Source of the DNA: a virus
DNA: 34,164 nt
IMG/VR virus record: IMGVR_UViG_3300018426_000080
Span: 1-34,164 of that record
Reading direction: 5' to 3' (one strand)
Positions 436 to 25,766 of the stretch are shown here, piece after piece (position 1 is the first letter of the stretch; each line of letters starts with the position of its first letter). The position numbers and the translations under genes are program-made. Below the pieces are notes generated by a model. That model had not been told where the DNA came from, searched no databases, and was given only the letters and a program-made list of their open reading frames with translations.

Positions 436-584
436 TCATCTGTATCTGCAATAATATAAAGCAATCGGACATTCAGAGGAATCCAAATCTTATATTTAAA
501 TGTGGAACACAGTGTGGCAAATGTAAGGAGGTAGTAAAAGATGAAGTTAGTCGTATGCGGTTGCAGTTGGTCAAGCAGAGATAA
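432..584 (+). CDS. BFD-like [2Fe-2S] protein (50 aa)
   Basis: The peptide opens with MIICICNN and continues to GTQCGKCKEV. It therefore has Cys4 and Cys6 (C-x-C) and Cys28 and Cys31 (C-x2-C), the four-cysteine pattern of the bacterioferritin-associated ferredoxin (BFD) fold that binds a [2Fe-2S] cluster. Bacterial BFD helps release iron from bacterioferritin; related domains also occur in other redox proteins. Its ATG overlaps the stop of the preceding membrane peptide, and its 3' end overlaps the SGNH-like gene by 44 bases. That overlap carries the SGNH gene's AAGGAGG ribosome site. It is complete at 50 residues, against about 60 for free-standing BFD. An iron-mobilising role during infection is inference. 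Confidence 0.75.
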   Translation: MIICICNNIKQSDIQRNPNLIFKCGTQCGKCKEVVKDEVSRMRLQLVKQR

Positions 585-1371
585 CACATTACCTGATACA
601 GAGTTCGGCGCATTAGCGGCTAAACATTTTGATTTAGAATATACTAATCTTGCCACAGTAGGTGCAAGCAACTTTGTAATTAGAAATCAAATAGATTACG
701 CAATCAACACACTTAAAGCAGATTTTATTATTGTTAATTGGACAACACCGTGCAGAACAGAGTGGGCAAAAACAGATGCTCTTTACGATTTTAGTAAAAC
801 CATAGAAAACTTTGATTACACAATAAACCCTACGTCACCAGTTAACCACTCACACCCTGCAAACCCTACTAAAAATCCAAACTTTTTATTTAACAGTATA
901 ACAACAATCTTAGACCAAGAGTCATACAGCGATTGGTTAGAGAATGAATTACATAGTCGGGGTTTAACAGTAACCGAAAAACAATTTCTAACAATGAAAA
1001 ATTATTTTTTACATTGGTATAGAGAAGACCTTGATGTTGCTAAACAGATGCACTATGTAAAAAGTGCAATATATGATTTAGAAAAAAGCAATACAAAATA
1101 TTTAATGAGTCTCAATACATTATTGTTTATGCAAGCATCAAACAGTAACTTGTATGATTACGAACATCTGATAAATCCGATACCAGAAGAATTTAATATA
1201 CAGGGAATTGCCAGTATGCTGAGGTTTCATGATATAGAAATAAAAGGCTGGACCGATTATGCTGACAATCCTGGTAAAGATCTAACATACCATATTAGCC
1301 CAGAAGCACAGCAATACTATTTTAACTCACTTTTAAAAGATCGTGTTTCTAAAATTTTGTGCATAGTATAA
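541..1371 (+). CDS. SGNH-hydrolase-like protein, copy 1
   Basis: This 276-residue protein begins MKLVVCGCSWSSRD. The GCS at residues 7-9 sits where SGNH/GDSL hydrolases have GDS, with Ser kept and Asp replaced by Cys. A mid-protein beta-strand (ADFIIVNWTTPCR) resembles the oxyanion-loop region, and a histidine near the C-terminus (YHISPEAQQ) could be the catalytic His. A strong AAGGAGG ribosome site lies 9 bases upstream. It is a paralogue of the gene at 2313-3188: the first 40 bases of both genes are nearly identical. Its 3' end overlaps the convergent glycosyltransferase gene by 55 bases. Proteins of this type are common but uncharacterised in marine phages; esterase activity on glycans is possible but unproven. 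Confidence 0.7.
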   Translation: MKLVVCGCSWSSRDNTLPDTEFGALAAKHFDLEYTNLATVGASNFVIRNQIDYAINTLKADFIIVNWTTPCRTEWAKTDALYDFSKTIENFDYTINPTSPVNHSHPANPTKNPNFLFNSITTILDQESYSDWLENELHSRGLTVTEKQFLTMKNYFLHWYREDLDVAKQMHYVKSAIYDLEKSNTKYLMSLNTLLFMQASNSNLYDYEHLINPIPEEFNIQGIASMLRFHDIEIKGWTDYADNPGKDLTYHISPEAQQYYFNSLLKDRVSKILCIV

Positions 1372-2312: not shown

Positions 2313-3188
2313 ATGAAATTAGTCGTATGTGGTTGCAGTTGGAGCAGTAGAGATCCGAGTTATCCGGACACCGAGTATGGCTATTTTATAGCCAAGCACT
2401 TTGGATGGGAATACGAAAATATTGCTAGGGTAGGATGTGATAATTTTGGCATAAGGTTACAAATTGATTATGCTATTGATGTGCTTAAAGCAGATTTTAT
2501 TGTGGTTAATTGGACCACAGCATGTAGAGTTGTTTGGAATCACAAAGGTAAAAAATATAGTCCTACCAAAGGATTAAAACAGTTAGACTACTCTGTTGAC
2601 AAATTCTTTGACAACGAAAGATGCCATCCTGAATACGGTAAAGAAGATTTTGATCCTACCATAATTTCGCAAAGTATTACTGGATTAGTTACATTTGGTA
2701 ACCTCATGAGCTCCTACGAGGAAGCACTCAAAGAGTGGCCTGAACTAGATTGGCATATGAATGCTGAACAGTTTTATGCATTTAGAAACTACTATTTAAA
2801 TCTTTATGATGATGACATAGAAGCACACAAACAATATTACATGATGGAAAGTGCTGTTACAAAAATGCAGAGGCACAATGTAAAATTTTTATTCTGCCCT
2901 AATACATTTAATTATATGCAAAGTGTTCATATTTCAAAAGATGAAAATTGGGAATACGAGAAACACGAAAGAAATGTATACGATGAAATGTATAATGATT
3001 GGATATTTGTACCAGAAGAAAGTTTATGTATAACTGGAGTTGCTTTTGCTCTACAATGGGACAACAACCGACAAGGTGGTAATGCCGCAGAGCACCCAGA
3101 TCATAATCATTGTCATCACTTATCTGCTTGGGCTCAGGAGAAATGGGCCACCGAAGTGGCCATTCCGCAGATTACAAGTTTACTATAA
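2313..3188 (+). CDS. SGNH-hydrolase-like protein, copy 2
   Basis: This 291-residue paralogue of the 541-1371 gene shares MKLVVCGCSWSSRD and the ADFIVVNWTTACR strand. GCS again replaces GDS in block I. The C-terminus holds a His-rich segment (EHPDHNHCHHLSAW) that fits the D-x-x-H of SGNH block V better than copy 1 does. There is no clear ribosome site before the ATG; the upstream bases are AT-rich (CTAAATATTGTT). It converges with the lipoprotein gene, overlapping it by 17 bases, and its 3' end contains the hairpin at 3146-3161. The substrate is unknown. Association with the neighbouring glycosyltransferase suggests a glycan. Confidence 0.7.
   Translation: MKLVVCGCSWSSRDPSYPDTEYGYFIAKHFGWEYENIARVGCDNFGIRLQIDYAIDVLKADFIVVNWTTACRVVWNHKGKKYSPTKGLKQLDYSVDKFFDNERCHPEYGKEDFDPTIISQSITGLVTFGNLMSSYEEALKEWPELDWHMNAEQFYAFRNYYLNLYDDDIEAHKQYYMMESAVTKMQRHNVKFLFCPNTFNYMQSVHISKDENWEYEKHERNVYDEMYNDWIFVPEESLCITGVAFALQWDNNRQGGNAAEHPDHNHCHHLSAWAQEKWATEVAIPQITSLL
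3146..3161 (-). terminator. cUUCGg tetraloop hairpin after the lipoprotein gene
   Basis: On the minus strand the sequence GGCCAC-TTCG-GTGGCC forms a perfect 6-bp stem closed by the very stable C(UUCG)G tetraloop. It begins 10 bases after the lipoprotein stop codon (3172-3174). No T-run follows, so this is more likely an RNA-stabilising or end-protecting hairpin than a classic intrinsic terminator. cUUCGg hairpins are a known feature of T4 transcripts. The same bases encode the C-terminus of the opposite SGNH-like gene. Confidence 0.55.
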
Positions 3189-5526
3189 ATCCTAATTCGT
3201 ATGTATTTAAGGACTCTGTATTGGCACTTGCCTTAAAGTATAGTGGACCAAAACTATGTACAAAGTCAATAGAACCTACTGTTAAACGATCTTTAAATTC
3301 ATATTTTAGATAGTCTGCAAAGTTAATATCTGAAGTACTTAGACTTTGATAATGATCTAATCCAATACCAAAAGCAGTGGTGCCAAATTTACTTTGTATA
3401 ACATATTTGGCATCTGCAAACAGTGTCATATCAAGCATAGTGAAACTGTTTACTTTAACATTCACTGCAGAATCACGCTCTGTGAAGCTCTGTACCGTCG
3501 TGTAAGCAAAGCCTGCACCAAGAGTATACACAAAGTTATCTTTTGCAAAAGCAAACTCTGTGAAGGTGTTAATGCTGTTATAATCGACATCAGCAGTACC
3601 GGTACCGTACCAAATAGTGTCGTTAAATGCTTCTAGTGTATTATCTACATAGTATACACCAGTGTGTACATTGTCATAATCGAAGTCAAATCCAACTACA
3701 CCACCTGTACTAGTACCGTCTAATTGTGCAATAAAAAACCCGTATTGGTCGTTTATATTGCCACTATAACCAAGCATACTAGAACCTTCTGTGTGGTTAA
3801 ACAGTATATTAGACCCTCTAGTAGCGTCTCTAACGCCGTCTAACAGCATCTTAGAGTTAAACACGGTCTTTGCATACCCTTGTGGTTTAGTTGTTATATC
3901 CTGCATCATCTGCATTAGAGGAGGATCTAACACCTGAAAAAATGTGGCAGTAAAACTATCGTAACCAGGCTCATCAGTATAACCTATAAAATCATATTGC
4001 CACTTACCGTCTATTTCTACTGGAAAATACATACAACCACCGCATTCGTTCATACGTGGATAGTCGTCATACATTTCAAACACACCGTTACCATCATTAA
4101 GTAAAACATAAGTGTTGTTCACACTATCAACGATGTCCATATCACCGTCTCTGTCAAAATCTAGAATGTGCAGAGACCCTTCACCGTTCCACCAACCGTT
4201 ACCACTACCCGTATCATACTTACCAATACCTGGATTATAAGAGCTAGTAACATCAGTAAAAGTTTCGTCGCCATTGTTTAAGAAAAACTGTACTGCTCTA
4301 CCTTGATAATAAGGCTCCCAACGTGTAGATGCTAGTACAATATCTAGTAACCCATCTCCGTTGATATCTATAACTTCCATATCATTGGCATTGCCCTGAG
4401 CACCATAATAATTATCCGGCAGTTCTGACCACCTAGTGCTCCAATCGTTGTTACCGTCGTTCCAAAAAACTGCACCTGCACTATGTTGATAGGTGTTACC
4501 AAAGCCCTCATCAAAAGCATACTCTGGTCTCATCCAGCCTACTGCAACATCTCCCATACCGTCATTATTAAAATCTCCGATGACCGCAGTGTTAGCACTC
4601 ATTCTTCCTGTGTCCATAAAGTTAGTATTCACTGTCTTAAATGAGCCTGCGCCATCGTTTATTAGCATGGACATTCCACCATGATAGTTACCAAAGATAT
4701 CTAGATCACCATCACCATCAGCATCACCTGCATATTGATCATGAGTGTATTGTCCGGACATCCACGAATCTTCAAGCGGGTCAAAAAAGAAATCTGGTTG
4801 TAAATCATCTTGCCTTACAATTTTACCATCTGAACTTAGAAAATAAACGCCAGTTCTCCAAAAGTCGTCAATGCCATCACCGTTAAAGTCTGCTACCAGT
4901 CCCCTTTGCAAATGAGTATTGAATCCGCACTCGTGATTAGGATCGTCTTTAAAGTCTAAATTGCCGTAATTAATACATGTCGAGCCTTCAAATAGGTCAG
5001 GTGAATATACAAAGTGCCCGTTTCCGTCATTAATAAATGCATGTAAAAATGAACGTGGCATATCTTCTCGGTTACCTTCGAAGAAGTCTTCATAATAAAA
5101 GTCTTCATGGCCATCACCGTTAAGGTCCGCTCTATGAACAATACCAGCAACTCGGAAAGGCCCTGGATCCTGTGCTTCAACACCTGTTACACCAGAATGT
5201 CTACCAGTGGTAGTGATTTCAAAAAACCCATAGTCAGCAATTTTATATTTGTCTGTCTTAGGAAACTGCGACTCGTCTCGATATGTGCTACTTTGATATG
5301 TGACACTAAAATCACTTGGAGTACCATCACCATCTGGATCTAGTGAGTAGTTATAAACAATTGGTTGAATTGTTTGGTACGGTTGTGTTGGTGTGCTACC
5401 ACCAGTGCTACCGGATGGCGGGGTATTAGTTGTAGAGATTCCAGCACTCCCACCACCACTAGCACAACCAACTACAGCAAAAATTACTGCACCGATTAAA
5501 ATAATATCAACTATTTTCTTTGACAT
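3172..5526 (-). CDS. VCBS/FG-GAP repeat lipoprotein with probable C-terminal beta-barrel
   Basis: The protein is 784 residues from the ATG at 5526, which has AGAGGGA 9 bases upstream; a longer frame to 5574 lacks this support. Residues 1-21 form a lipoprotein signal ending in the lipobox VVGC, followed by a Gly/Ser/Thr-rich linker to about residue 50. Aspartate-rich, calcium-binding-like repeats follow: DLNGDGHEDF (134), DFNGDGIDDF (213), DADGDGDLDI (268), DFNNDGMGDV (318), DINGDGLLDI (387) and DFDRDGDMDI (456). They are interspersed with INDGNG/LNDGNG turns, as in FG-GAP/VCBS beta-propellers. From about 560 to the end, alternating aromatic strands (for example NFVYTLGAGFAYTTV) look like an outer-membrane barrel. 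It is probably displayed on the host surface, for adhesion, receptor masking or superinfection exclusion; the role is inference. Confidence 0.75.
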   Translation of the reverse strand: MSKKIVDIILIGAVIFAVVGCASGGGSAGISTTNTPPSGSTGGSTPTQPYQTIQPIVYNYSLDPDGDGTPSDFSVTYQSSTYRDESQFPKTDKYKIADYGFFEITTTGRHSGVTGVEAQDPGPFRVAGIVHRADLNGDGHEDFYYEDFFEGNREDMPRSFLHAFINDGNGHFVYSPDLFEGSTCINYGNLDFKDDPNHECGFNTHLQRGLVADFNGDGIDDFWRTGVYFLSSDGKIVRQDDLQPDFFFDPLEDSWMSGQYTHDQYAGDADGDGDLDIFGNYHGGMSMLINDGAGSFKTVNTNFMDTGRMSANTAVIGDFNNDGMGDVAVGWMRPEYAFDEGFGNTYQHSAGAVFWNDGNNDWSTRWSELPDNYYGAQGNANDMEVIDINGDGLLDIVLASTRWEPYYQGRAVQFFLNNGDETFTDVTSSYNPGIGKYDTGSGNGWWNGEGSLHILDFDRDGDMDIVDSVNNTYVLLNDGNGVFEMYDDYPRMNECGGCMYFPVEIDGKWQYDFIGYTDEPGYDSFTATFFQVLDPPLMQMMQDITTKPQGYAKTVFNSKMLLDGVRDATRGSNILFNHTEGSSMLGYSGNINDQYGFFIAQLDGTSTGGVVGFDFDYDNVHTGVYYVDNTLEAFNDTIWYGTGTADVDYNSINTFTEFAFAKDNFVYTLGAGFAYTTVQSFTERDSAVNVKVNSFTMLDMTLFADAKYVIQSKFGTTAFGIGLDHYQSLSTSDINFADYLKYEFKDRLTVGSIDFVHSFGPLYFKASANTESLNTYELGFIVNL

Positions 5527-5812
5527 GTTTACAATTCCCTCTAAAAGTAAAACCAGGACAACTACACTTACCATCTTCTATGGTGTATGTTTTGCCCCCT
5601 GAACCTTGAACCACAATTACATCTTTGCTAAACTCTTCTGGACGCTCACCAATTTTAGTAAACTTCCTACGAGCCTTGCTAAAGCCTTTAAGTGGATTCT
5701 TAAACACAACGTCATTGTGCTGAACAAGATGTCCAGCACTGTTGACATGATATATTCCATTGGCGACTGGGTACTTGCCCCAGTCGGTTGTTTCTTGAAG
5801 TATCTCAATCAT
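5507..5812 (-). CDS. Small SWIM-type zinc-finger protein
   Basis: This 101-residue protein ends with CSCPGFTFRGNCKH (Cys83, Cys85, Cys94, His96), the C-x-C-x8-C-x-H pattern of SWIM zinc fingers, which bind nucleic acid or protein. The preceding residues (VQGSGGKTYTIEDGK) form the usual short beta-hairpin before the finger. The N-terminal 70 residues are basic and unrecognised. The ATG overlaps the upstream stop (TAATG), and the 3' end overlaps the lipoprotein start by 20 bases, so it is translated as part of that operon. SWIM domains occur in SWI2/SNF2 ATPases and MuDR transposases; here the finger stands alone with a short N-terminal extension. Confidence 0.7.
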   Translation of the reverse strand: MIEILQETTDWGKYPVANGIYHVNSAGHLVQHNDVVFKNPLKGFSKARRKFTKIGERPEEFSKDVIVVQGSGGKTYTIEDGKCSCPGFTFRGNCKHVKENS

Positions 5813-6324
5813 TATTGAATAATACCGTTAGCCAAATCATATTGGGTAGCAATACTTTCGTACAATCTGTAGTACTCAGCATCGCTGTTTGGTCTGTGCT
5901 CTGAACTGTAAAGATCAGCATCAACAAAGTTCCAGTTAATTGAACCATCTTCGTTGATATTCTCAGGTGAACTAACAGCATTATTAAATGCTCTAGCAAA
6001 CTCTGGTCTATACTCAGCAGTCCTGTAGTTTACACTTTTAGCAAAGAAACCTAATTTCTCAAGTTGCAATACCAAAGTATTCATACCAGGAAATTTACCA
6101 GTATCTTCATACTCACCTAAAGTGATTTGCATTGGGTCATCAATGATGTAGAACTCATCATCTGCAGGAACAAAATCTAAGTTAGCAACAAACTCTTCTA
6201 CAAGTTGTTTACCCTTTTCAAATGCTTCAGCATCTCTGGTTCTGTATTGGAAGTCGTGGATTTCACACCCTTTCTGTAAGCCTGTTGGCTCTTTTTGCAT
6301 ACCTAAAATTCTAATATTCAACAT
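5812..6324 (-). CDS. Conserved-looking phage protein of unknown function (170 aa)
   Basis: I chose the ATG at 6324 because GGTAGGAG lies just upstream; a longer frame reaches 6357 with no such site. The protein (MLNIRILGMQKEPTG...) is acidic, soluble and without membrane segments or motifs I recognise. It is the first gene after the promoter at 6360-6387, with a leader of about 30 bases. It is followed by the SWIM protein and the lipoprotein in one apparent operon. No function is assigned. Confidence 0.75.
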   Translation of the reverse strand: MLNIRILGMQKEPTGLQKGCEIHDFQYRTRDAEAFEKGKQLVEEFVANLDFVPADDEFYIIDDPMQITLGEYEDTGKFPGMNTLVLQLEKLGFFAKSVNYRTAEYRPEFARAFNNAVSSPENINEDGSINWNFVDADLYSSEHRPNSDAEYYRLYESIATQYDLANGIIQ

Positions 6325-6359: not shown

Positions 6360-6387
6360 ATTATAGCAAAAAAGTAGGATTTGTCAA
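6360..6387 (-). promoter_or_regulatory. Sigma70-type promoter P1 (extended -10)
   Basis: The minus strand carries TTGACA (6387-6382), a 16-base spacer, and TGC-TATAAT (-10 at 6365-6360). It drives the 170-aa, SWIM and lipoprotein genes. All bases of both hexamers are consensus. Confidence 0.85.
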
Positions 6388-10895: not shown

Positions 10896-11471
10896 TTATT
10901 GATTTTCAAGTAAAATAGCAGTAGGATTAGCAGTTTTGCTAGGTTTCCACGTGAAAAGTTGTAATCCTACTCTAGTTTTCTGTGATAAATTGACCGGCAT
11001 TCCGTGATATGAAGATTTAGTATCCATGCTACCCTTGTAAAAAACACCGCAATTAAATTTAGGTTGTACTAACTGTAAGATATTTGTTTCGTCATCACGC
11101 CAAGCAAACTGGCCGCCGTCTTCCGCAGTCCAATCCTTGTTCAAAAATATAGTTATAGAGTATAATGCACTATCCCTGTGCATTGGTAGGATTGAACCGG
11201 TTGGGTATTTTTGTACTGCACCATCAGTGTTTCTTATTAATTTATCGTCGTAAAATGGAGAATTAGGATCATTATATAAGTGTGTGGTTATCTCTAGTAC
11301 TACACTCTTTGATAACGGCTCTATGTAAACTTCTGGTAATGTCTTATTGCCTGTTGAAAAATCGTTCCATCGGTCGTAACTACTTTTATCAGTATCTTTA
11401 ATTTCAAAGTGATCTTTATGTATTTTTTCTGCTAGGGCTAGAGGTAAGATATTTTCTATATATGTGAACAC
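10896..11471 (-). CDS. 2OG-Fe(II) oxygenase, copy A
   Basis: The 191-residue protein is a prolyl-4-hydroxylase-like dioxygenase. His98 and Asp100 (MHRD) with His156 (YHGM) give the iron triad, and Arg167 (KTRVGL) would bind 2-oxoglutarate. It begins with GTG at 11471, preceded by GGAGG inside the upstream gene's last codons. It is a tandem paralogue of the next gene (both start MFTYIEN). Substrates of phage oxygenases of this family are mostly unknown; proline or lysine side chains, or nucleobases, are possible. Confidence 0.85.
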   Translation of the reverse strand: MFTYIENILPLALAEKIHKDHFEIKDTDKSSYDRWNDFSTGNKTLPEVYIEPLSKSVVLEITTHLYNDPNSPFYDDKLIRNTDGAVQKYPTGSILPMHRDSALYSITIFLNKDWTAEDGGQFAWRDDETNILQLVQPKFNCGVFYKGSMDTKSSYHGMPVNLSQKTRVGLQLFTWKPSKTANPTAILLENQ

Positions 11472-11472
11472 T

Positions 11473-12027
11473 CTATACCATCCTCCATCTATTTTCCATT
11501 ATAAAAAGTTGTAATGCTATTCTATTCTTTTGTGATAAATTTGCTGGAACTCCATGGTACGGACATTTTTTTCCGCTAGTGTTTTTATAATATACACCAC
11601 AATTAAATTTTGGTTGCACAACATTGAGTATATTTGTATCTTCATCTTGCCATACAAATTGCCCTCCGTCTTCTGCAGTCCACTCTTTATTTAAAAAAAT
11701 AGTAAAAGTGTAACCGGTATTATCTCTGTGCATCGGTAATACCGAACCTGGTAGATATTTTAATACAAGTGCATCTGTATTTTTTATTAACTTATCGCCG
11801 TAAAATGGAGAGTTCTGATTAGAAAATAAGTGATTAGTTATTTCTAAAATAACTGAACCTGGAAGTTGTTCTAAAAATACTTCCGGAAGTATTTTATTTT
11901 GTGAATTCCAGTCAGTATAGTTCCAACGTTCGTGACTACTTAGGTCAGTAGATTTAACTTCAGAATGGTTTGAAAAGATTCTTTCTGCTAGTTCTGTTGG
12001 CAGAACATTTTCTATATATGTAAACAT
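11473..12027 (-). CDS. 2OG-Fe(II) oxygenase, copy B
   Basis: This 184-residue paralogue of the preceding gene has His100, Asp102, His158 and Arg169 in the same arrangement, so both copies look catalytically intact. The last residues (MENRWRMV) diverge completely from copy A. Those codons also hold copy A's ribosome site, suggesting that the tail was reshaped by the junction of a tandem duplication. The ATG overlaps the stop of the upstream gene (TAATG) and has no good ribosome site. A TATAAATA sequence at 12035-12042 lies immediately upstream. Confidence 0.85.
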   Translation of the reverse strand: MFTYIENVLPTELAERIFSNHSEVKSTDLSSHERWNYTDWNSQNKILPEVFLEQLPGSVILEITNHLFSNQNSPFYGDKLIKNTDALVLKYLPGSVLPMHRDNTGYTFTIFLNKEWTAEDGGQFVWQDEDTNILNVVQPKFNCGVYYKNTSGKKCPYHGVPANLSQKNRIALQLFIMENRWRMV

Positions 12028-12998: not shown

Positions 12999-13823
12999 TT
13001 ATAGTTCAATAAATTTATCTAAAAATGGCATCAAAACTTCATATGTAAAATGTCTATGTGCTAACTCACTAGGGTGAGAGTTGTCGCCAGCATGCCAATT
13101 ATGTTTAGATTTAAACAATCTATTTTTACACCAGTTAGCCATTCCCTCATGAGTTATGCAACGTGAAAAATCTAATTGTGTATACATCCAATCTAGTATA
13201 CCTGACTCTTTTAGTGAACTATTATAAAAATTTTTCCACTCATCAGTATAGTTACACCAAAAATACTCTATGTTGTTTGCTTTGCAGAAATTTTGTAAAG
13301 CAAGCATACTAAACGTATGTCGATCCCAATCGTCGTATTGATTAGTAAACTTTTGATAAAATTCTTCTACTCGGGGTACTTGATGCCCTGGAGTCCAATA
13401 AATATAGCCTGGAGTTCCTGCAGGCGAAACAGAGCCATCTAATAATATATTTTGAGTAGTAGACATATTAATGTTAAATTTTTCGACCAGGGTTTCATAG
13501 TTTGGGATTGATGCTAACTTTTTATTTCCTTCTTCGATTAACATATTACTAGTTATATAATCATTGTTATTAGAAGATAAAAATGCTTTACGGCTGTGGC
13601 CGCTCCACATAGCAATAACAACAATTTTTTCTTCAGGATTAGTTTTCATTGCATGTGATGCTCGGTACATTAACTTTCGAGAAATTAGGTCGTGCCCTTG
13701 TGCATCATAACCGGTATGTAAAAACGAATGTTTTGATGATAGTTTATTTTCTAGAAAAGAATTCCAAGTAGTAACTGTATCACCGGTATATGAAAAACTA
13801 CATCCGCCGGTTAAAAATATCAT
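12999..13823 (-). CDS. SGNH-hydrolase-like protein, third member
   Basis: The 274-residue protein begins MIFLTGGCSFSYTGD, again with GCS in place of GDS. It has a strand KIVVIAMWSGHSR where SGNH proteins carry their oxyanion residues, and DNSHPSELAHRHF near the C-terminus. DNSHPS is a good SGNH block V (D-x-x-H-P). It is only distantly related to the two left-end copies. Its ATG overlaps the upstream stop (ATGA). Substrate is unknown; similar proteins in bacteria act on acetylated glycans. Confidence 0.7.
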   Translation of the reverse strand: MIFLTGGCSFSYTGDTVTTWNSFLENKLSSKHSFLHTGYDAQGHDLISRKLMYRASHAMKTNPEEKIVVIAMWSGHSRKAFLSSNNNDYITSNMLIEEGNKKLASIPNYETLVEKFNINMSTTQNILLDGSVSPAGTPGYIYWTPGHQVPRVEEFYQKFTNQYDDWDRHTFSMLALQNFCKANNIEYFWCNYTDEWKNFYNSSLKESGILDWMYTQLDFSRCITHEGMANWCKNRLFKSKHNWHAGDNSHPSELAHRHFTYEVLMPFLDKFIEL

Positions 13824-16921: not shown

Positions 16922-17806
16922 TTATGTACCCCACGCATTACCAAACAGATTAATATGTAGTCTAGGACTAAACTTATAACCTGTATTCATGCATATTTCT
17001 GCTACATTACGTTCTGTTAATGTTTGTTGTTCCAGTGTAGCACCTTCTGGCATTAAGTATACAGAGTCAAGATTTACACCTGACTCTTTATAACTGTTAA
17101 CAAACATATCTACTTCGCTTAAACATTCGTTGTCTCTCACAACAAATTTGTTATATAAAAAACTGTTATCAACTTGATTCATTGTTAGCAATACATCTGG
17201 CTTTAGTGCGTCATCTGTAGTTTCGCCACTAATACTTAGTTTAGGAGATGTACTCCAAGTAACATGCAAGTTAGGTTGCGTTAGGTTAAAGTATGTTACT
17301 AGTTCACTTTTAACATCTTGTGTACCATTTGTTTCAAATGTAACATTCTTTAGTCCTTTCTTTACACAAAGATCTAAAAGGCCCGGCCAAACACGTTGCC
17401 ACCCTAGTAGCGGTTCACCACCTGTGATCACCAAGTGTATGTCTTCACCGTGTTGGCCGGTGAACGTACCGTTGGGAAGTAAACTGGTGATGTGATCAAA
17501 CACCTCTTCAACAGATTTAGTCATCTGTAAATGTTTATACTTCATTGCCCAACTGGCACTGGAATCGCAACCTATTGGCGTAACAGGAAGTTCGTCAATA
17601 GATTTATATGCTTCTGGATGTTCTTTATCCGCTTTAGGATCAGTTGCATATGGCATTTCGTGTACAGGTATAAGATCGCCACGTGGCTGACCAAAACCTG
17701 CACATTCAAAATTACAGCCAAATACTCTAAGGAATACACTAGGCACACCAACAAATCTGCCTTCTCCTTGTACTGAGTAAAATGCTTCGCTATATCTTAG
17801 TTTCAA
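16922..17806 (-). CDS. queE: 7-carboxy-7-deazaguanine synthase (radical SAM)
   Basis: QueE converts 6-carboxy-tetrahydropterin to 7-carboxy-7-deazaguanine (CDG) using S-adenosylmethionine and a 4Fe-4S cluster. The N-terminus (YSEAFYSVQGEGRFVGVPSVFLR) is typical of QueE, and the SAM-binding ITGGEPLL motif follows near residue 127. The cluster cysteines are unusual: Cys31 and Cys35 are C-x3-C as usual, but the usual third Cys two residues later is absent. Cys80 (GCDSSASW) probably replaces it after a 44-residue insertion. The start is TTG at 17806, overlapping the upstream TGA. At 294 residues it is longer than most QueE proteins (about 210-250). It belongs with folE and queD in this window. 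Confidence 0.88.
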   Translation of the reverse strand: MKLRYSEAFYSVQGEGRFVGVPSVFLRVFGCNFECAGFGQPRGDLIPVHEMPYATDPKADKEHPEAYKSIDELPVTPIGCDSSASWAMKYKHLQMTKSVEEVFDHITSLLPNGTFTGQHGEDIHLVITGGEPLLGWQRVWPGLLDLCVKKGLKNVTFETNGTQDVKSELVTYFNLTQPNLHVTWSTSPKLSISGETTDDALKPDVLLTMNQVDNSFLYNKFVVRDNECLSEVDMFVNSYKESGVNLDSVYLMPEGATLEQQTLTERNVAEICMNTGYKFSPRLHINLFGNAWGT

Positions 17807-18318
17807 TGTAAAGTACCTGTTGCGTTATCATCGAATGTCATTGATTTAAGTACATCACTGGGATCAAACTGTCCAATTACATTCGTTAGTTCGTTGTAAA
17901 CCACAGTATGTAGATTACTTACTTCTGAAATATCTCCGTTATCAAGTAGTTCTTCGCAAACTTCTGTAATAACCATTTCTAGCCCTTTTGTAAATAAAAG
18001 TCTAGTATCATCTGATTCTGGAAGAAATACTTTACCAAAGTTAATTAATCCAAAATACATTGTGTCTGAAACTTTCGATACCTCAATATCAATATCGGTG
18101 TCATTACCAATATTTTCTAATTTAAAATTCTTATCTTTAGGAGGAACTTTGTCTGCATAGTAATCAATTACTTCCCAAATTTCCACATAAGATACAGGAT
18201 AACGCTTTTGCACCCATTCAAATGTTTTACCGTCAATCAAACTATCAGCAATGTCTGAAACAATTACACCATTGCCAGATGTTACTACTACGTTTTTACC
18301 TCTAGTCTCTAAACCCAT
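17803..18318 (-). CDS. Unknown protein between folE and queE (171 aa)
   Basis: The gene is locked between folE (TAATG overlap) and queE (TTGA overlap), so all three are likely co-translated. Residues 8-55 contain VVTSGNGVIVSDIADSLIDG, then KRYPVSYVEIWEVIDYY, faintly recalling DUF433-type helix-turn-helix proteins. The rest is acidic and helical. I assign no function; tight coupling suggests a role connected to the 7-deazaguanine pathway. Confidence 0.7.
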   Translation of the reverse strand: MGLETRGKNVVVTSGNGVIVSDIADSLIDGKTFEWVQKRYPVSYVEIWEVIDYYADKVPPKDKNFKLENIGNDTDIDIEVSKVSDTMYFGLINFGKVFLPESDDTRLLFTKGLEMVITEVCEELLDNGDISEVSNLHTVVYNELTNVIGQFDPSDVLKSMTFDDNATGTLH

Positions 18319-19007
18319 TATTTACCACACGCAAATTCTTGTTGAAGTTTAATATTATCCATAAATTCTTTTTTAGTTGCAGGATCGTTTGCAAAAGCAC
18401 CTTCTAATACAGTTGTTTGCGTTAAACTGCTAGTTGCCATGATGCCTCTATTTTCACAACAACCATGTGTTGCTTGAATGTAAACACCAACGTTATCACT
18501 GCCAGTTGCCTTCATAATTTCTCTGGCAACATCATTGCACAATTCTTCTTGTAGTGTACCGCGTCTTGCACACCATTGTGCTATTCGAGTATACTTGCTC
18601 AAGCCGATCAATTTCTCACCTGCAATAATACCAATGTATGCAACGCCTTTTACTGGCTGGTGATGATGAGAACACATGCTAACAAGTTCACTGCGAACAA
18701 CTAACATGCCTTTATATCCTTCTTCAACTTCATTAGGAAAAGCAGTTGCATTAGGCATTGGATCATATCTGCCACTCATTAATTCGTTGATATACATCTT
18801 AGCAAGACGTCTGCCAGTTGCCTGACTGTTAGGATCGTTTTCGATATCAATAACTAAACTGTCTAGTACACTTTCGAACTTAGGCGTCAGTTCATCGATA
18901 AGTGCTTCTTTATCACCTTCGTACATAAACTGAGATATATTATCACCTGCCCAAAACTTACCGTTTGCTTGTTTAATTCTACCTTTTATTACATCACTTA
19001 TCGCCAT
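18318..19007 (-). CDS. folE: GTP cyclohydrolase I
   Basis: The 229-residue enzyme converts GTP to dihydroneopterin triphosphate, the first step of the 7-deazaguanine pathway as well as of folate synthesis. Zinc ligands Cys112, His115 (CSHHHQP) and Cys183 (HGCCENRG) are all present, with spacing as in the E. coli enzyme (Cys110, His113, Cys181). The GLSKYTRIAQWCARRGTLQEEL segment is also typical. It overlaps the DUF465-like gene by 14 bases. A perfect TTGACA-N17-TATAAT promoter (P6) lies about 100 bases upstream, inside that gene. Confidence 0.95.
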   Translation of the reverse strand: MAISDVIKGRIKQANGKFWAGDNISQFMYEGDKEALIDELTPKFESVLDSLVIDIENDPNSQATGRRLAKMYINELMSGRYDPMPNATAFPNEVEEGYKGMLVVRSELVSMCSHHHQPVKGVAYIGIIAGEKLIGLSKYTRIAQWCARRGTLQEELCNDVAREIMKATGSDNVGVYIQATHGCCENRGIMATSSLTQTTVLEGAFANDPATKKEFMDNIKLQQEFACGK

Positions 19008-23675: not shown

Positions 23676-24190
23676 TAATCAATAACCTCGTCTTTGGTAT
23701 ATTTGGTCCAATCGGTAAATGTTTCTCTAGTTTGTAGTGCAGGTAAACTGTGGCACCATACGCCTGGATTACTTGCTTTAAATCCCTTGTCGTCAATTTT
23801 TAATGTAGCATTATATCCTAACTGGTTAATGTAAGGAATCTTTACACTAATCTGAGGAATAAAATTATGATACTCTGTTGCACCACTTTCTAATACCCAT
23901 TCTGTATCTGCTACATCAAAGTCCAATGTAGTCCACACACCTTCTTTGACCAGAGTCATTATGATATGATCCCATTCTTTGCTGTCCTCTTCTGTGTGGT
24001 CAGGAGCAAAACTTTGGTTAGCACCTAAGTATACATGAGGACAATCGCAATTAAGTGCTCTGGCGAGGATCTCCTTAGGGTTTTGTTTACCTACAACAAA
24101 CAATGTTTTTTGTCCGTAAGCAGGTGTTTGTTCTACTTCAATACCAATAAAGAATTTGGTATCATCTGTGTGTCCGTCTCTATTCTTCAA
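23675..24190 (-). CDS. Unknown protein coupled to dpdA (171 aa, TTG start)
   Basis: The frame starts with TTG at 24190, inside the last codons of the dpdA-like gene, with AGGAG five bases upstream. Visible features are FFIGIEVEQTPAYGQKTLFVVG, a cysteine pair region (NCDCPHVYLGANQSF), and the strands FIPQISVKIPYINQLGYNATLKI. The fold looks alpha/beta with no membrane segment. It is not QueC: the PP-loop SGGxDS is absent. I do not recognise the family. The tight coupling makes it a candidate partner of the transglycosylase, perhaps processing or delivering the base. Confidence 0.75.
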   Translation of the reverse strand: MKNRDGHTDDTKFFIGIEVEQTPAYGQKTLFVVGKQNPKEILARALNCDCPHVYLGANQSFAPDHTEEDSKEWDHIIMTLVKEGVWTTLDFDVADTEWVLESGATEYHNFIPQISVKIPYINQLGYNATLKIDDKGFKASNPGVWCHSLPALQTRETFTDWTKYTKDEVID

Positions 24191-25766
24191 AGAAATCTCC
24201 TGTCATTGCTGGGTCCATCATCACATCTGCAAAGTCTCTTTCCTCATCTTCGTGTACTTCACTAACCACTGTTTCTTCCTCAAAGAAACTGTTAATAGCA
24301 TCTTGAGGGTTTTCACTTTGTACCTTGTAAATGCCAAAGTTAATATGTTGTATTAATTTGTCGTATTGATCAATAAGTTCGTGTGGATTAGGACATGCAG
24401 GGTCTAATACTTCCTGTACAAAACTGTCAAATGCAATTACATCTGCAGGCACATACGGAGAAATATCATTGGTTGCTTTGCTCTTCTTATCAAAGATAAA
24501 GTCTTTATGACTCCAATCAATCCTATACTTTTCTACATCAGTGAGTCTGTTTGCTTCTTGTACTGCTGTAATATGATTAAATACACTGTGACCCATATAG
24601 AACAAGTAACTTAATGTATCCCAACTTGTACTGTCAGCACCTTTTGCTTTACCATTTCTATCTAAGTCACCTTCAGCCATACAACATAGATCGCCCATTG
24701 TGAGTCTGCTCATCACAGGTGAATGTCCAAACGGCACTGGTTGTTTAGATCCCTTCCACCTTTGATTATCAAATGCTCGATCCATAAAGTAACCAAACCT
24801 TTTGCCTTTGTTTTCAAAGATGTTATATGCATAAGTTTGTCCGTATGCTGTATTAACAAAAGGAGATGCCGCATCAAAACTTAGTGTGATGTTAGGTGAA
24901 TCATGCTTACGCAACATTCTTTGAATACTAGTTAAGTGACATGCCCATTGCAGTCTACCAGTACCAAGAAAGTGAATCCAGCCCTTGTCTTTTAACAAGC
25001 CATCTTCACGAAGTTTAAGCAATCGCTTTAACACACATCTCATGTTACGCATGTTAATACCTGCAAATGCGTAACCTTCTAGTGTTCTCGATTCATCTCC
25101 GTAAGCATCTTTTACAAATGCTGGATCACTAAAATGTTTTACTGCTTCGTACCATTGATCTGATGTGTATTCATCAGAACCGGATAGTACATTTAAGAAC
25201 TTACACTTTTCAGGATTTCTGTTCCTCATATAATAATCTAGGTTAAGAACTGAGATATCAACTGTGTCCTGGAAACTGGTAAGTCCTGTTTTGGCACTGT
25301 AAGGTGGAGCCGCCGCAAAGCCTGGAATATCAAGAGTCATTGCCCAATCGGCCGTGTGTTCTTCCCACTTGAGAATCTTTTCACACAATGCTAATCTTGC
25401 AGGGTCATTAGGATCTTTGGCGTTCGCCCAATCCATTTTAAGTACACCTGTAGCAATTTGGAAACCGCCTGAGTCTCCTAATATCATTGTTTTGCTTTGA
25501 TCTCTGCCTTGCACCATTGCTTCTTCTTTGTTGCTCTTCTCAATATCTAAGTGAGCATGGCCTGCAGAGTACAGTCCATATGGATAATGAAAGTAACTGT
25601 TATCCGGATCTAGGAAGTTGAGACCTTCTAGGCCCTTTTCAAAGCCTTCTGGTACACGCCATTCATCAGGATTATCAATTGCCTTTTGTAATTGTTTTGT
25701 ATAAAAACTAGATATAGCAGGCAAATAAACTGCATAATCTGATTGTGTTTTTCCTAAATCACTCAT
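24180..25766 (-). CDS. dpdA: DpdA-like 7-deazaguanine DNA transglycosylase
   Basis: The 528-residue protein belongs to the tRNA-guanine transglycosylase (TGT) superfamily. GDSGGFQ at 97-103 is the TGT signature with the conserved Asp98. MTLDIPG (143-149), YAFAGIN (232-238), HFLGTGR (265-271) and SFDAASP (296-302) match, in order, the substrate-pocket strands and the nucleophile Asp of TGT (here Asp298). The canonical C-x-C-x2-C-x25-H zinc site is not visible. Phage TGT relatives of this kind (DpdA) exchange guanine in DNA for a 7-deazaguanine, protecting it from restriction. It lies 3 bases from the clamp gene and shares a genome segment with folE, queD and queE. A tRNA role is the alternative. 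Confidence 0.85.
   Translation of the reverse strand: MSDLGKTQSDYAVYLPAISSFYTKQLQKAIDNPDEWRVPEGFEKGLEGLNFLDPDNSYFHYPYGLYSAGHAHLDIEKSNKEEAMVQGRDQSKTMILGDSGGFQIATGVLKMDWANAKDPNDPARLALCEKILKWEEHTADWAMTLDIPGFAAAPPYSAKTGLTSFQDTVDISVLNLDYYMRNRNPEKCKFLNVLSGSDEYTSDQWYEAVKHFSDPAFVKDAYGDESRTLEGYAFAGINMRNMRCVLKRLLKLREDGLLKDKGWIHFLGTGRLQWACHLTSIQRMLRKHDSPNITLSFDAASPFVNTAYGQTYAYNIFENKGKRFGYFMDRAFDNQRWKGSKQPVPFGHSPVMSRLTMGDLCCMAEGDLDRNGKAKGADSTSWDTLSYLFYMGHSVFNHITAVQEANRLTDVEKYRIDWSHKDFIFDKKSKATNDISPYVPADVIAFDSFVQEVLDPACPNPHELIDQYDKLIQHINFGIYKVQSENPQDAINSFFEEETVVSEVHEDEERDFADVMMDPAMTGDFFEE

What the first reader, a model, noticed from the sequence alone, without database searches (positions are those of the whole stretch)
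3172..5526. Phage-borne surface lipoprotein with calcium-type propeller repeats and barrel
A lipobox, at least six D-x-N/D-x-D-G repeats and an aromatic strand-rich C-terminus are combined in one 784-residue protein. A phage has little use for a lipoprotein except to alter the host envelope, so superinfection exclusion, receptor masking or cell adhesion are candidates. It may also be a recently acquired bacterial gene.
Basis: partly seen in the sequence, partly recalled or inferred. Interest (0 to 1): 0.68.

Follow-up and report, generated by a model that had tools for sequence, protein, structure and literature searches.

The report
Phage-encoded lipidated propeller autotransporter
A marine T4-type (probably jumbo) phage carries an early-type gene for a lipid-anchored, calcium-binding beta-propeller fused to a self-export barrel, so it probably coats the surface of the cell it has infected, most likely to keep competing phages off.

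Summary
The 784-aa protein is real, at 3172-5526, but on the minus strand. The lipobox holds: the stretch CASGGGS is invariant in 10 of 10 close phage homologs. Six Dx[DN]xDG calcium motifs lie in a VCBS/FG-GAP propeller, and a seventh lies N-terminal to it (0.28 expected by chance).

The C-terminus is more than "a barrel". AlphaFold2 predicts a pore-type helix plus 12 strands. All of the 16 best structural matches are autotransporter translocators (NalP Z 22.2, EspP 21.4, EstA 19.6). The protein is therefore best read as a phage-encoded lipidated autotransporter with NalP-like architecture and an integrin/VCBS-type propeller as passenger.

It is an established phage gene, not a recent bacterial acquisition. 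Its codon usage matches the phage, more than 20 IMG/VR contigs carry it, and a SWIM zinc-finger ORF precedes it in nearly all of the close family. Seven related contigs encode T4-like Gp23.

A perfect sigma-70 promoter heads its operon, in the class that precedes polB, and a terminator follows it. Propeller and barrel have been reshuffled between phages (for example 87% against 35% identity).

Surface display is well supported. Superinfection exclusion or receptor masking is the likeliest purpose, but it is inferred. Close isolates are lacking.

The parts
3172..5526 (-). CDS of the 784-aa lipidated propeller autotransporter
5464..5526 (-). Signal peptide and lipobox, residues 1-21 (AVVG|C21); C21-A-S-G-G-G-S invariant in 10 of 10 homologs, +2 residue not Asp
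5362..5463 (-). Ser/Gly/Thr/Pro-rich tether, residues 22-55, low-confidence disordered in the model
3922..5253 (-). FG-GAP/VCBS beta-propeller passenger, residues 92-535
5110..5127 (-). Ca motif DLNGDG (res 134)
4873..4890 (-). Ca motif DFNGDG (res 213)
4708..4725 (-). Ca motif DADGDG (res 268)
4558..4575 (-). Ca motif DFNNDG (res 318)
4351..4368 (-). Ca motif DINGDG (res 387)
4144..4161 (-). Ca motif DFDRDG (res 456)
3823..3918 (-). Pore-type alpha-helix, residues 537-568, between propeller and barrel
3175..3810 (-). 12-stranded autotransporter-type translocator barrel, residues 573-784, ending in an OMP-type C-terminal signature
3583..3633 (-). Tip of hairpin 5-6 (NxTxWYGTGxAD), the most conserved part of the barrel; extracellular under autotransporter topology
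5507..5812 (-). 101-aa SWIM zinc-finger ORF overlapping the lipoprotein start by 20 nt; conserved partner gene
5812..6324 (-). First gene of the operon, 170 aa from the ATG with an AGGAG site (ORF listed from 6357); no family match
6360..6387 (-). Perfect sigma-70-type promoter TTGACA-N16-TATAAT with TG before the -10 box
3146..3161 (-). Terminator-like hairpin GGCCAC-TTCG-GTGGCC just after the stop codon (z -3.6 for 3135-3175)

Best explanation
The gene encodes a lipidated type V (autotransporter-like) outer-membrane protein made by the infected cell. Proposed steps. (1) The early-type sigma-70 promoter at 6387 drives a three-gene operon ending in this gene (promoter, overlaps and terminator are seen; timing is inferred). 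(2) The signal peptide takes the protein through Sec, and Cys21 is acylated by the host lipoprotein enzymes (inferred from the invariant lipobox). (3) BAM inserts the 12-strand C-terminal barrel into the outer membrane, and the propeller is passed through or with it to the outside, leaving the helix in the pore (inferred from the autotransporter fold, as for NalP). (4) The calcium-loaded propeller folds outside, held at both ends by lipid and barrel. (5) The propeller, perhaps with the conserved outer hairpin of the barrel, binds or covers the adsorption receptor or an incoming tail protein and so excludes further phages. Step 5 is the likeliest purpose but is inference. My estimates: lipoprotein 0.95, autotransporter-type architecture 0.85, display on the cell surface 0.75, superinfection exclusion or receptor masking 0.4.
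For: Lipobox Cys and CASGGGS invariant while the signal peptide varies. Propeller: Pfam, integrin alpha-V by profile E 5e-9, Agrocybe lectin by Foldseek E 9e-9, 7-bladed propellers Z about 21. Barrel modelled alone, pLDDT 83: the 16 best VIA-align rows are all autotransporters (NalP Z 22.2, rmsd 3.1 A, 228 residues; EspP 21.4; EstA 19.6; AaaA 18.9; AIDA-I 18.8), ahead of FapF and KdgM at 16.3. Long loops (679-694, 729-746) fall on the outer side and turns of 2-3 residues on the periplasmic side under that topology. OMP-type C-terminal signature. Early-type control: 6 perfect promoters in the window against 0.075 expected, heading polB, folE and this operon; promoters only upstream of this gene and none in the ~13 kb down to gp23 in three related contigs; none before gp23 in 7 of 7. 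Precedents: lipidated NalP, SphB1, AlpA and CapA stay on the cell surface (PMC9289746, PMC7857515); T5 Llp and Rtp45 are phage outer-membrane lipoproteins for superinfection exclusion (PMC9586334, PMC12685063).
Against: No sequence-level match to any autotransporter family or PDB chain; the case rests on predicted models made from 19 sequences. Overall TM-scores to EspP and EstA are moderate, about 0.5-0.58. Known superinfection-exclusion lipoproteins are small and periplasmic, not large and surface-displayed. In several relatives the gene lies beside baseplate and portal genes, so a structural role is not excluded. Propeller-only lipoprotein relatives (L028, L029, L032) suggest that the barrel is dispensable in some phages.
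Confidence: 0.5

Rival explanations
1. Same surface-displayed autotransporter, but its job is adhesion: the propeller binds neighbouring cells or particles (glycans or proteins), clumping infected cells and easing spread of progeny.
For: Many autotransporters are adhesins (review PMC9289746); the propeller belongs to the VCBS/integrin/PVL-lectin supercluster (PMC8023676) and its top Foldseek hit is a GlcNAc lectin.
Against: The Trp/His sugar-pocket pattern of the lectin (PMC4483166) is not seen repeated before each Ca motif in the window sequence (read by eye); early-type expression is less expected for a spread function.
Confidence: 0.2
2. The barrel inserts but the propeller stays in the periplasm, anchored by lipid on the inner leaflet, and acts there on an outer-membrane receptor or BAM, like a large Llp or Rtp45.
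For: The structurally studied phage exclusion lipoproteins Llp and Rtp45 act from the periplasm; propeller-only relatives without a barrel keep the lipobox.
Against: Helix plus 12-strand barrel is the fold of proteins that export their N-terminal passenger.
Confidence: 0.15
3. A virion component (tail or baseplate adhesin) whose hydrophobic N-terminus is misread as a signal peptide.
For: Neighbours in relatives include a gp26-like baseplate gene and portal.
Against: Invariant lipobox Cys with variable hydrophobic stretch; outer-membrane barrel with OMP signature; sigma-70-type promoter and terminator isolate it from the structural block.
Confidence: 0.08
4. A recently captured bacterial surface gene kept for host fitness (nutrient or polysaccharide capture), not for phage competition.
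For: One cellular relative, 48% identical, in a Piscirickettsiaceae MAG.
Against: Phage-like codon usage; deep divergence and conserved SWIM linkage among phages; no barrel match in 274 genomes of that class, though that search had no positive control.
Confidence: 0.07

Closest known systems
NalP (Neisseria; lipidated type Va autotransporter; also SphB1, AlpA, CapA)
   Same: Lipobox N-terminus, passenger, helix, 12-strand C-terminal barrel; NalP translocator is the top structural match (Z 22.2)
   Different: NalP is bacterial and its passenger is a subtilisin protease; here the passenger is a VCBS/integrin-type propeller, the gene is phage-borne, and sequence identity is about 10%
EspP, EstA, AaaA, AIDA-I autotransporter translocators
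   Same: Barrel and pore helix superpose (Z 18.8-21.4)
   Different: Different passengers, no lipid anchor in the classical ones (own knowledge), no detectable sequence similarity
T5 Llp, T1 Cor, Rtp45 superinfection-exclusion lipoproteins
   Same: Phage-encoded outer-membrane lipoproteins; Llp is expressed early
   Different: Small (Rtp45 ~6 kDa), Llp and Rtp45 periplasmic, no barrel or propeller (PMC9586334, PMC12685063)
Uncultured Caudovirales phage proteins A0A6J5KUW0 ('Autotransporter beta-domain') and A0A6J5L9S5 ('VCBS repeat', 831 aa) in BFVD
   Same: Phage proteins with a matching predicted barrel; the second carries a VCBS-type annotation
   Different: Known only as automatic annotations; sequences not available here, relation untested at sequence level
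Integrin alpha-V, PVL and AAL2 propellers (VCBS supercluster)
   Same: FG-GAP-type propeller with Dx[DN]xDG calcium loops
   Different: No repeated lectin sugar pocket seen; different architecture and context

Membership tests
Type Va autotransporter | C-terminal 12-stranded barrel preceded by a pore helix | tested here: met
   AF2 of the domain, helix 5-36 plus 12 strands, pLDDT 83; 16 best structural matches are autotransporters
Type Va autotransporter | N-terminal signal peptide and passenger before the barrel on one chain | tested here: met
Type Va autotransporter | C-terminal OMP beta-signal for BAM | tested here: met
   Hydrophobic/aromatic alternating C-termini in the barrel members; window ends in L rather than F/W
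Type Va autotransporter | Sequence match to Autotransporter family models | tested here: not met
   No Pfam, NCBIfam or PDB-sequence match for the barrel; hence described as autotransporter-type by fold, not filed as a member by sequence
Type Va autotransporter | Passenger actually exported to the surface | not testable with these tools
   needs cell-surface accessibility assay
Bacterial lipoprotein (SPase II substrate) | Signal peptide with lipobox and invariant Cys | tested here: met
   Cys and CASGGGS invariant in 10 of 10 close homologs, Cys in 19 of 19 of A2
VCBS/FG-GAP integrin-like propeller | FG-GAP repeats with Dx[DN]xDG motifs and propeller fold | tested here: met
PVL/AAL2-type GlcNAc lectin | Asn/Asp...Trp...His sugar pocket repeated in the blades | tested here: inconclusive
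   Residues from PMC4483166; pattern not evident by eye before the Ca motifs, no structure-based alignment made
Phage superinfection-exclusion lipoprotein | Blocks adsorption of further phages | not testable with these tools
   no isolate
Phage superinfection-exclusion lipoprotein | Expressed early | tested here: inconclusive
   Early-type promoter present and absent from the structural block in three contigs; no transcript data

The most novel reading that the evidence does not exclude
Marine T4-type phages run their own surface-display secretion device: a lipidated autotransporter with interchangeable modules that presents an integrin-like propeller on the infected cell as an exclusion shield, with barrel and propeller reshuffled between phages as in an arms race.
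Probability: 0.4. Interest if true: 0.82.

Novelty: new variant of a known kind. Interest (0 to 1): 0.66.

Why it matters
If true, phages carry type V secretion proteins of their own and use them to remodel the outside of the host early in infection, a larger and different device from the small periplasmic lipoproteins known to exclude superinfection. It would give a testable function to a gene family now seen in more than 20 marine phage contigs, and a natural example of module exchange between autotransporter passenger and translocator.

Tried and rejected
Recent bacterial capture: rejected on codon usage and distribution. Virion adhesin: disfavoured (lipobox, promoter class). T4-type late promoter TATAAATA: only 2 in the window, fewer than expected by chance, none at this gene, and none before gp23 of relatives either, so it is uninformative. 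Defence-system protein: no PADLOC match. Isolate relatives: none in 50,697 phage records by tblastn, none in four jumbo phages with the nearest polB by profile. Barrel in bacterial genomes of the class of the MAG hit: none in 274, no positive control. Literature: no paper with 'phage-encoded autotransporter' nor with VCBS repeat + phage + marine in the open-access library; subscription papers and preprints were not searchable. Lectin reading of the propeller: sugar pocket not evident.

Full report
Observation. The protein lies at 3172-5526 on the minus strand and is 784 aa long; the plus strand is closed. It has a signal peptide ending in AVVG|C, a Ser/Gly/Thr/Pro tether, FG-GAP repeats (Pfam E 1e-20) and seven Dx[DN]xDG motifs against 0.28 expected. 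Six of the motifs lie in the propeller.

Phage context. The window is a 34,164-bp virus record. Its family B DNA polymerase is nearest to those of jumbo myoviruses (Sinorhizobium phage Phosso, Vibrio phage 2.275.O, Atu_ph07, 121Q; 42-46%). Seven of 16 records searched (the window and 15 that carry the gene) have T4-type Gp23, including contigs of 250 and 340 kb. Neighbours in relatives include late sigma gp55, gp46/47-like nuclease subunits, portal and a gp26-like baseplate protein. The window itself is a fragment, so 'jumbo' is likely but not shown for it.

Family. The protein query found 9 IMG/VR loci of 44-58% identity in the best segment. Profile queries brought 38 and 23 loci, overlapping each other and including distant propellers. 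In close members Cys21-Ala-Ser-Gly-Gly-Gly-Ser is invariant (10 of 10) and Cys is invariant in 19 of 19, while the hydrophobic stretch before it varies, which is what lipidation predicts. A ~100-aa SWIM zinc-finger ORF (Pfam E 1e-4, over cut-off) precedes the gene in 24 of the 30 loci examined, including propeller-only relatives L028, L029 and L033. It is absent in L026/L027, in the distant L034-L036 and in the MAG hit L049. No match exists in 50,697 isolate phage records.

Structure. With 19 family sequences AlphaFold2 gives a propeller, a helix at 537-562 and twelve strands from 573 to 780 (pLDDT 75.6). The C-terminal domain alone, with its own 19-row alignment, gives pLDDT 83 and the same helix plus 12 strands. 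VIA-align ranks 16 autotransporter chains first: NalP Z 22.2 (rmsd 3.1 A over 228), EspP 21.4, EstA 19.6, AaaA 18.9, AIDA-I 18.8; then FapF and KdgM at 16.3. Foldseek agrees at E about 4e-5. Under autotransporter topology the long loops fall outside and the periplasmic turns have 2-3 residues, as in real outer-membrane proteins. C-termini carry the alternating hydrophobic signature. The most conserved parts of the barrel are the outer hairpin 5-6 (NxTxWYGTGxAD, mean entropy 1.11) and the pore helix (1.26), opposite to barrels under antigenic pressure and compatible with a docking site for the propeller. The propeller matches integrin alpha-V by profile (E 5e-9), a mushroom lectin by Foldseek (E 9e-9) and seven-bladed propellers (Z about 21). 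In BFVD two uncultured phage proteins match the barrel, one named 'Autotransporter beta-domain', one 'VCBS repeat', so phage-borne autotransporters sit in databases as automatic annotations.

Module exchange. Propeller and barrel have separate histories: L004/L019 are 87% identical in the propeller and 35% in the barrel; L001/L003 88% and 41%; L003/L004 53% and 74%; L014/L020 83% and 39%. At nucleotide level L004 and L019 return to 72-87% identity downstream of the swapped barrel, with the break near the propeller-helix boundary. Some relatives lack the barrel and remain lipoproteins.

Expression. The window has six perfect TTGACA-N16/17-TATAAT sites, all on the minus strand, against 0.075 expected. 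They stand before polB (29582), folE (19136), the DUF2201 gene (9369) and others, and one at 6387 heads the operon of a 170-aa protein, the SWIM ORF and this gene. A hairpin terminator follows the stop codon. Homologs have an 11- or 12-of-12 promoter 340-1260 nt upstream, except L026. In three related contigs all such sites lie upstream of this gene and none in the ~13 kb down to gp23, and none precedes gp23 in seven contigs; a fourth contig has one or two in the structural block. This points to early or middle expression by host-type sigma, without proving it.

Origin. Codon usage is about as close to the rest of the window as that of the polymerase. The scan of 84,980 species genomes gave one close hit, a 594-codon frame without lipobox or barrel on a 3.1-kb contig of a Piscirickettsiaceae MAG. 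A recent bacterial origin is not supported.

Mechanism. Lipidated autotransporters (NalP, SphB1, AlpA, CapA) hold their passengers on the cell surface (PMC9289746, PMC7857515). By analogy the phage protein should be inserted by BAM and show the propeller outside, held by lipid and barrel. Phage lipoproteins of the outer membrane with known function exclude superinfection: Llp of T5, a lipoprotein expressed early according to a title cited in PMC9586334, and Rtp45 (PMC12685063). Jumbo cyanophage-like marine phages are also thought to alter the host surface against further infection (PMC9123017). Exclusion or receptor masking is therefore the best guess, at about 0.4; adhesion 0.2, periplasmic action 0.15.

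Verdict. Observation confirmed; interpretation partly supported and sharpened. Filed as a new variant of a known kind: autotransporter-type by fold, not by sequence family.

Noticed in passing
window minus strand 29582, 26576, 23137, 19136, 9369, 6387: Six perfect sigma-70 promoters (0.075 expected), suggesting that the phage's non-structural genes use near-consensus host promoters.
   Followed up: partly
window 18318-19007, 16922-17806, 24180-25766 (minus): GTP cyclohydrolase I (Pfam E 3e-39) beside genes that look by eye like QueE and a TGT/DpdA-type enzyme, hinting at 7-deazaguanine DNA modification; the latter two had no Pfam match.
   Followed up: partly
window 541-1371 +, 2313-3188 +, 12999-13823 -: Two paralogous ORFs starting MKLVVCGCSWSSRD lie on the gene's downstream side, with a third similar-looking one elsewhere; no Pfam or PHROGs match (first two) or Pfam match (third).
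   Followed up: partly
window 10896-12027 (minus): Two adjacent, similar ORFs; the first is a 2OG-Fe(II) oxygenase, the second resembles it by eye.
   Followed up: no
L003, L004, L014-L016, L019, L020: Propeller and barrel swapped between phages at the domain boundary, with conserved flanks.
   Followed up: yes
L026/L027 (G008): Divergent member without SWIM neighbour, lipobox YGC-K; its C-terminal barrel profile match runs through one TAA, so the barrel may be truncated.
   Followed up: no
L035 5230-6996: Distant phage propeller lipoprotein that looks as if it carries a peptidoglycan-binding domain after its lipobox (by eye).
   Followed up: no
L002 14380-18273, L007 11543-15757: Very long ORFs (1297-1404 aa) near the cassette with no Pfam match and at most a weak PHROGs match.
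   Followed up: partly
L049: Only close cellular relative, in a MAG labelled SI034, with a signal-like N-terminus but no lipobox and no barrel; the 3.1-kb contig could itself be viral.
   Followed up: partly
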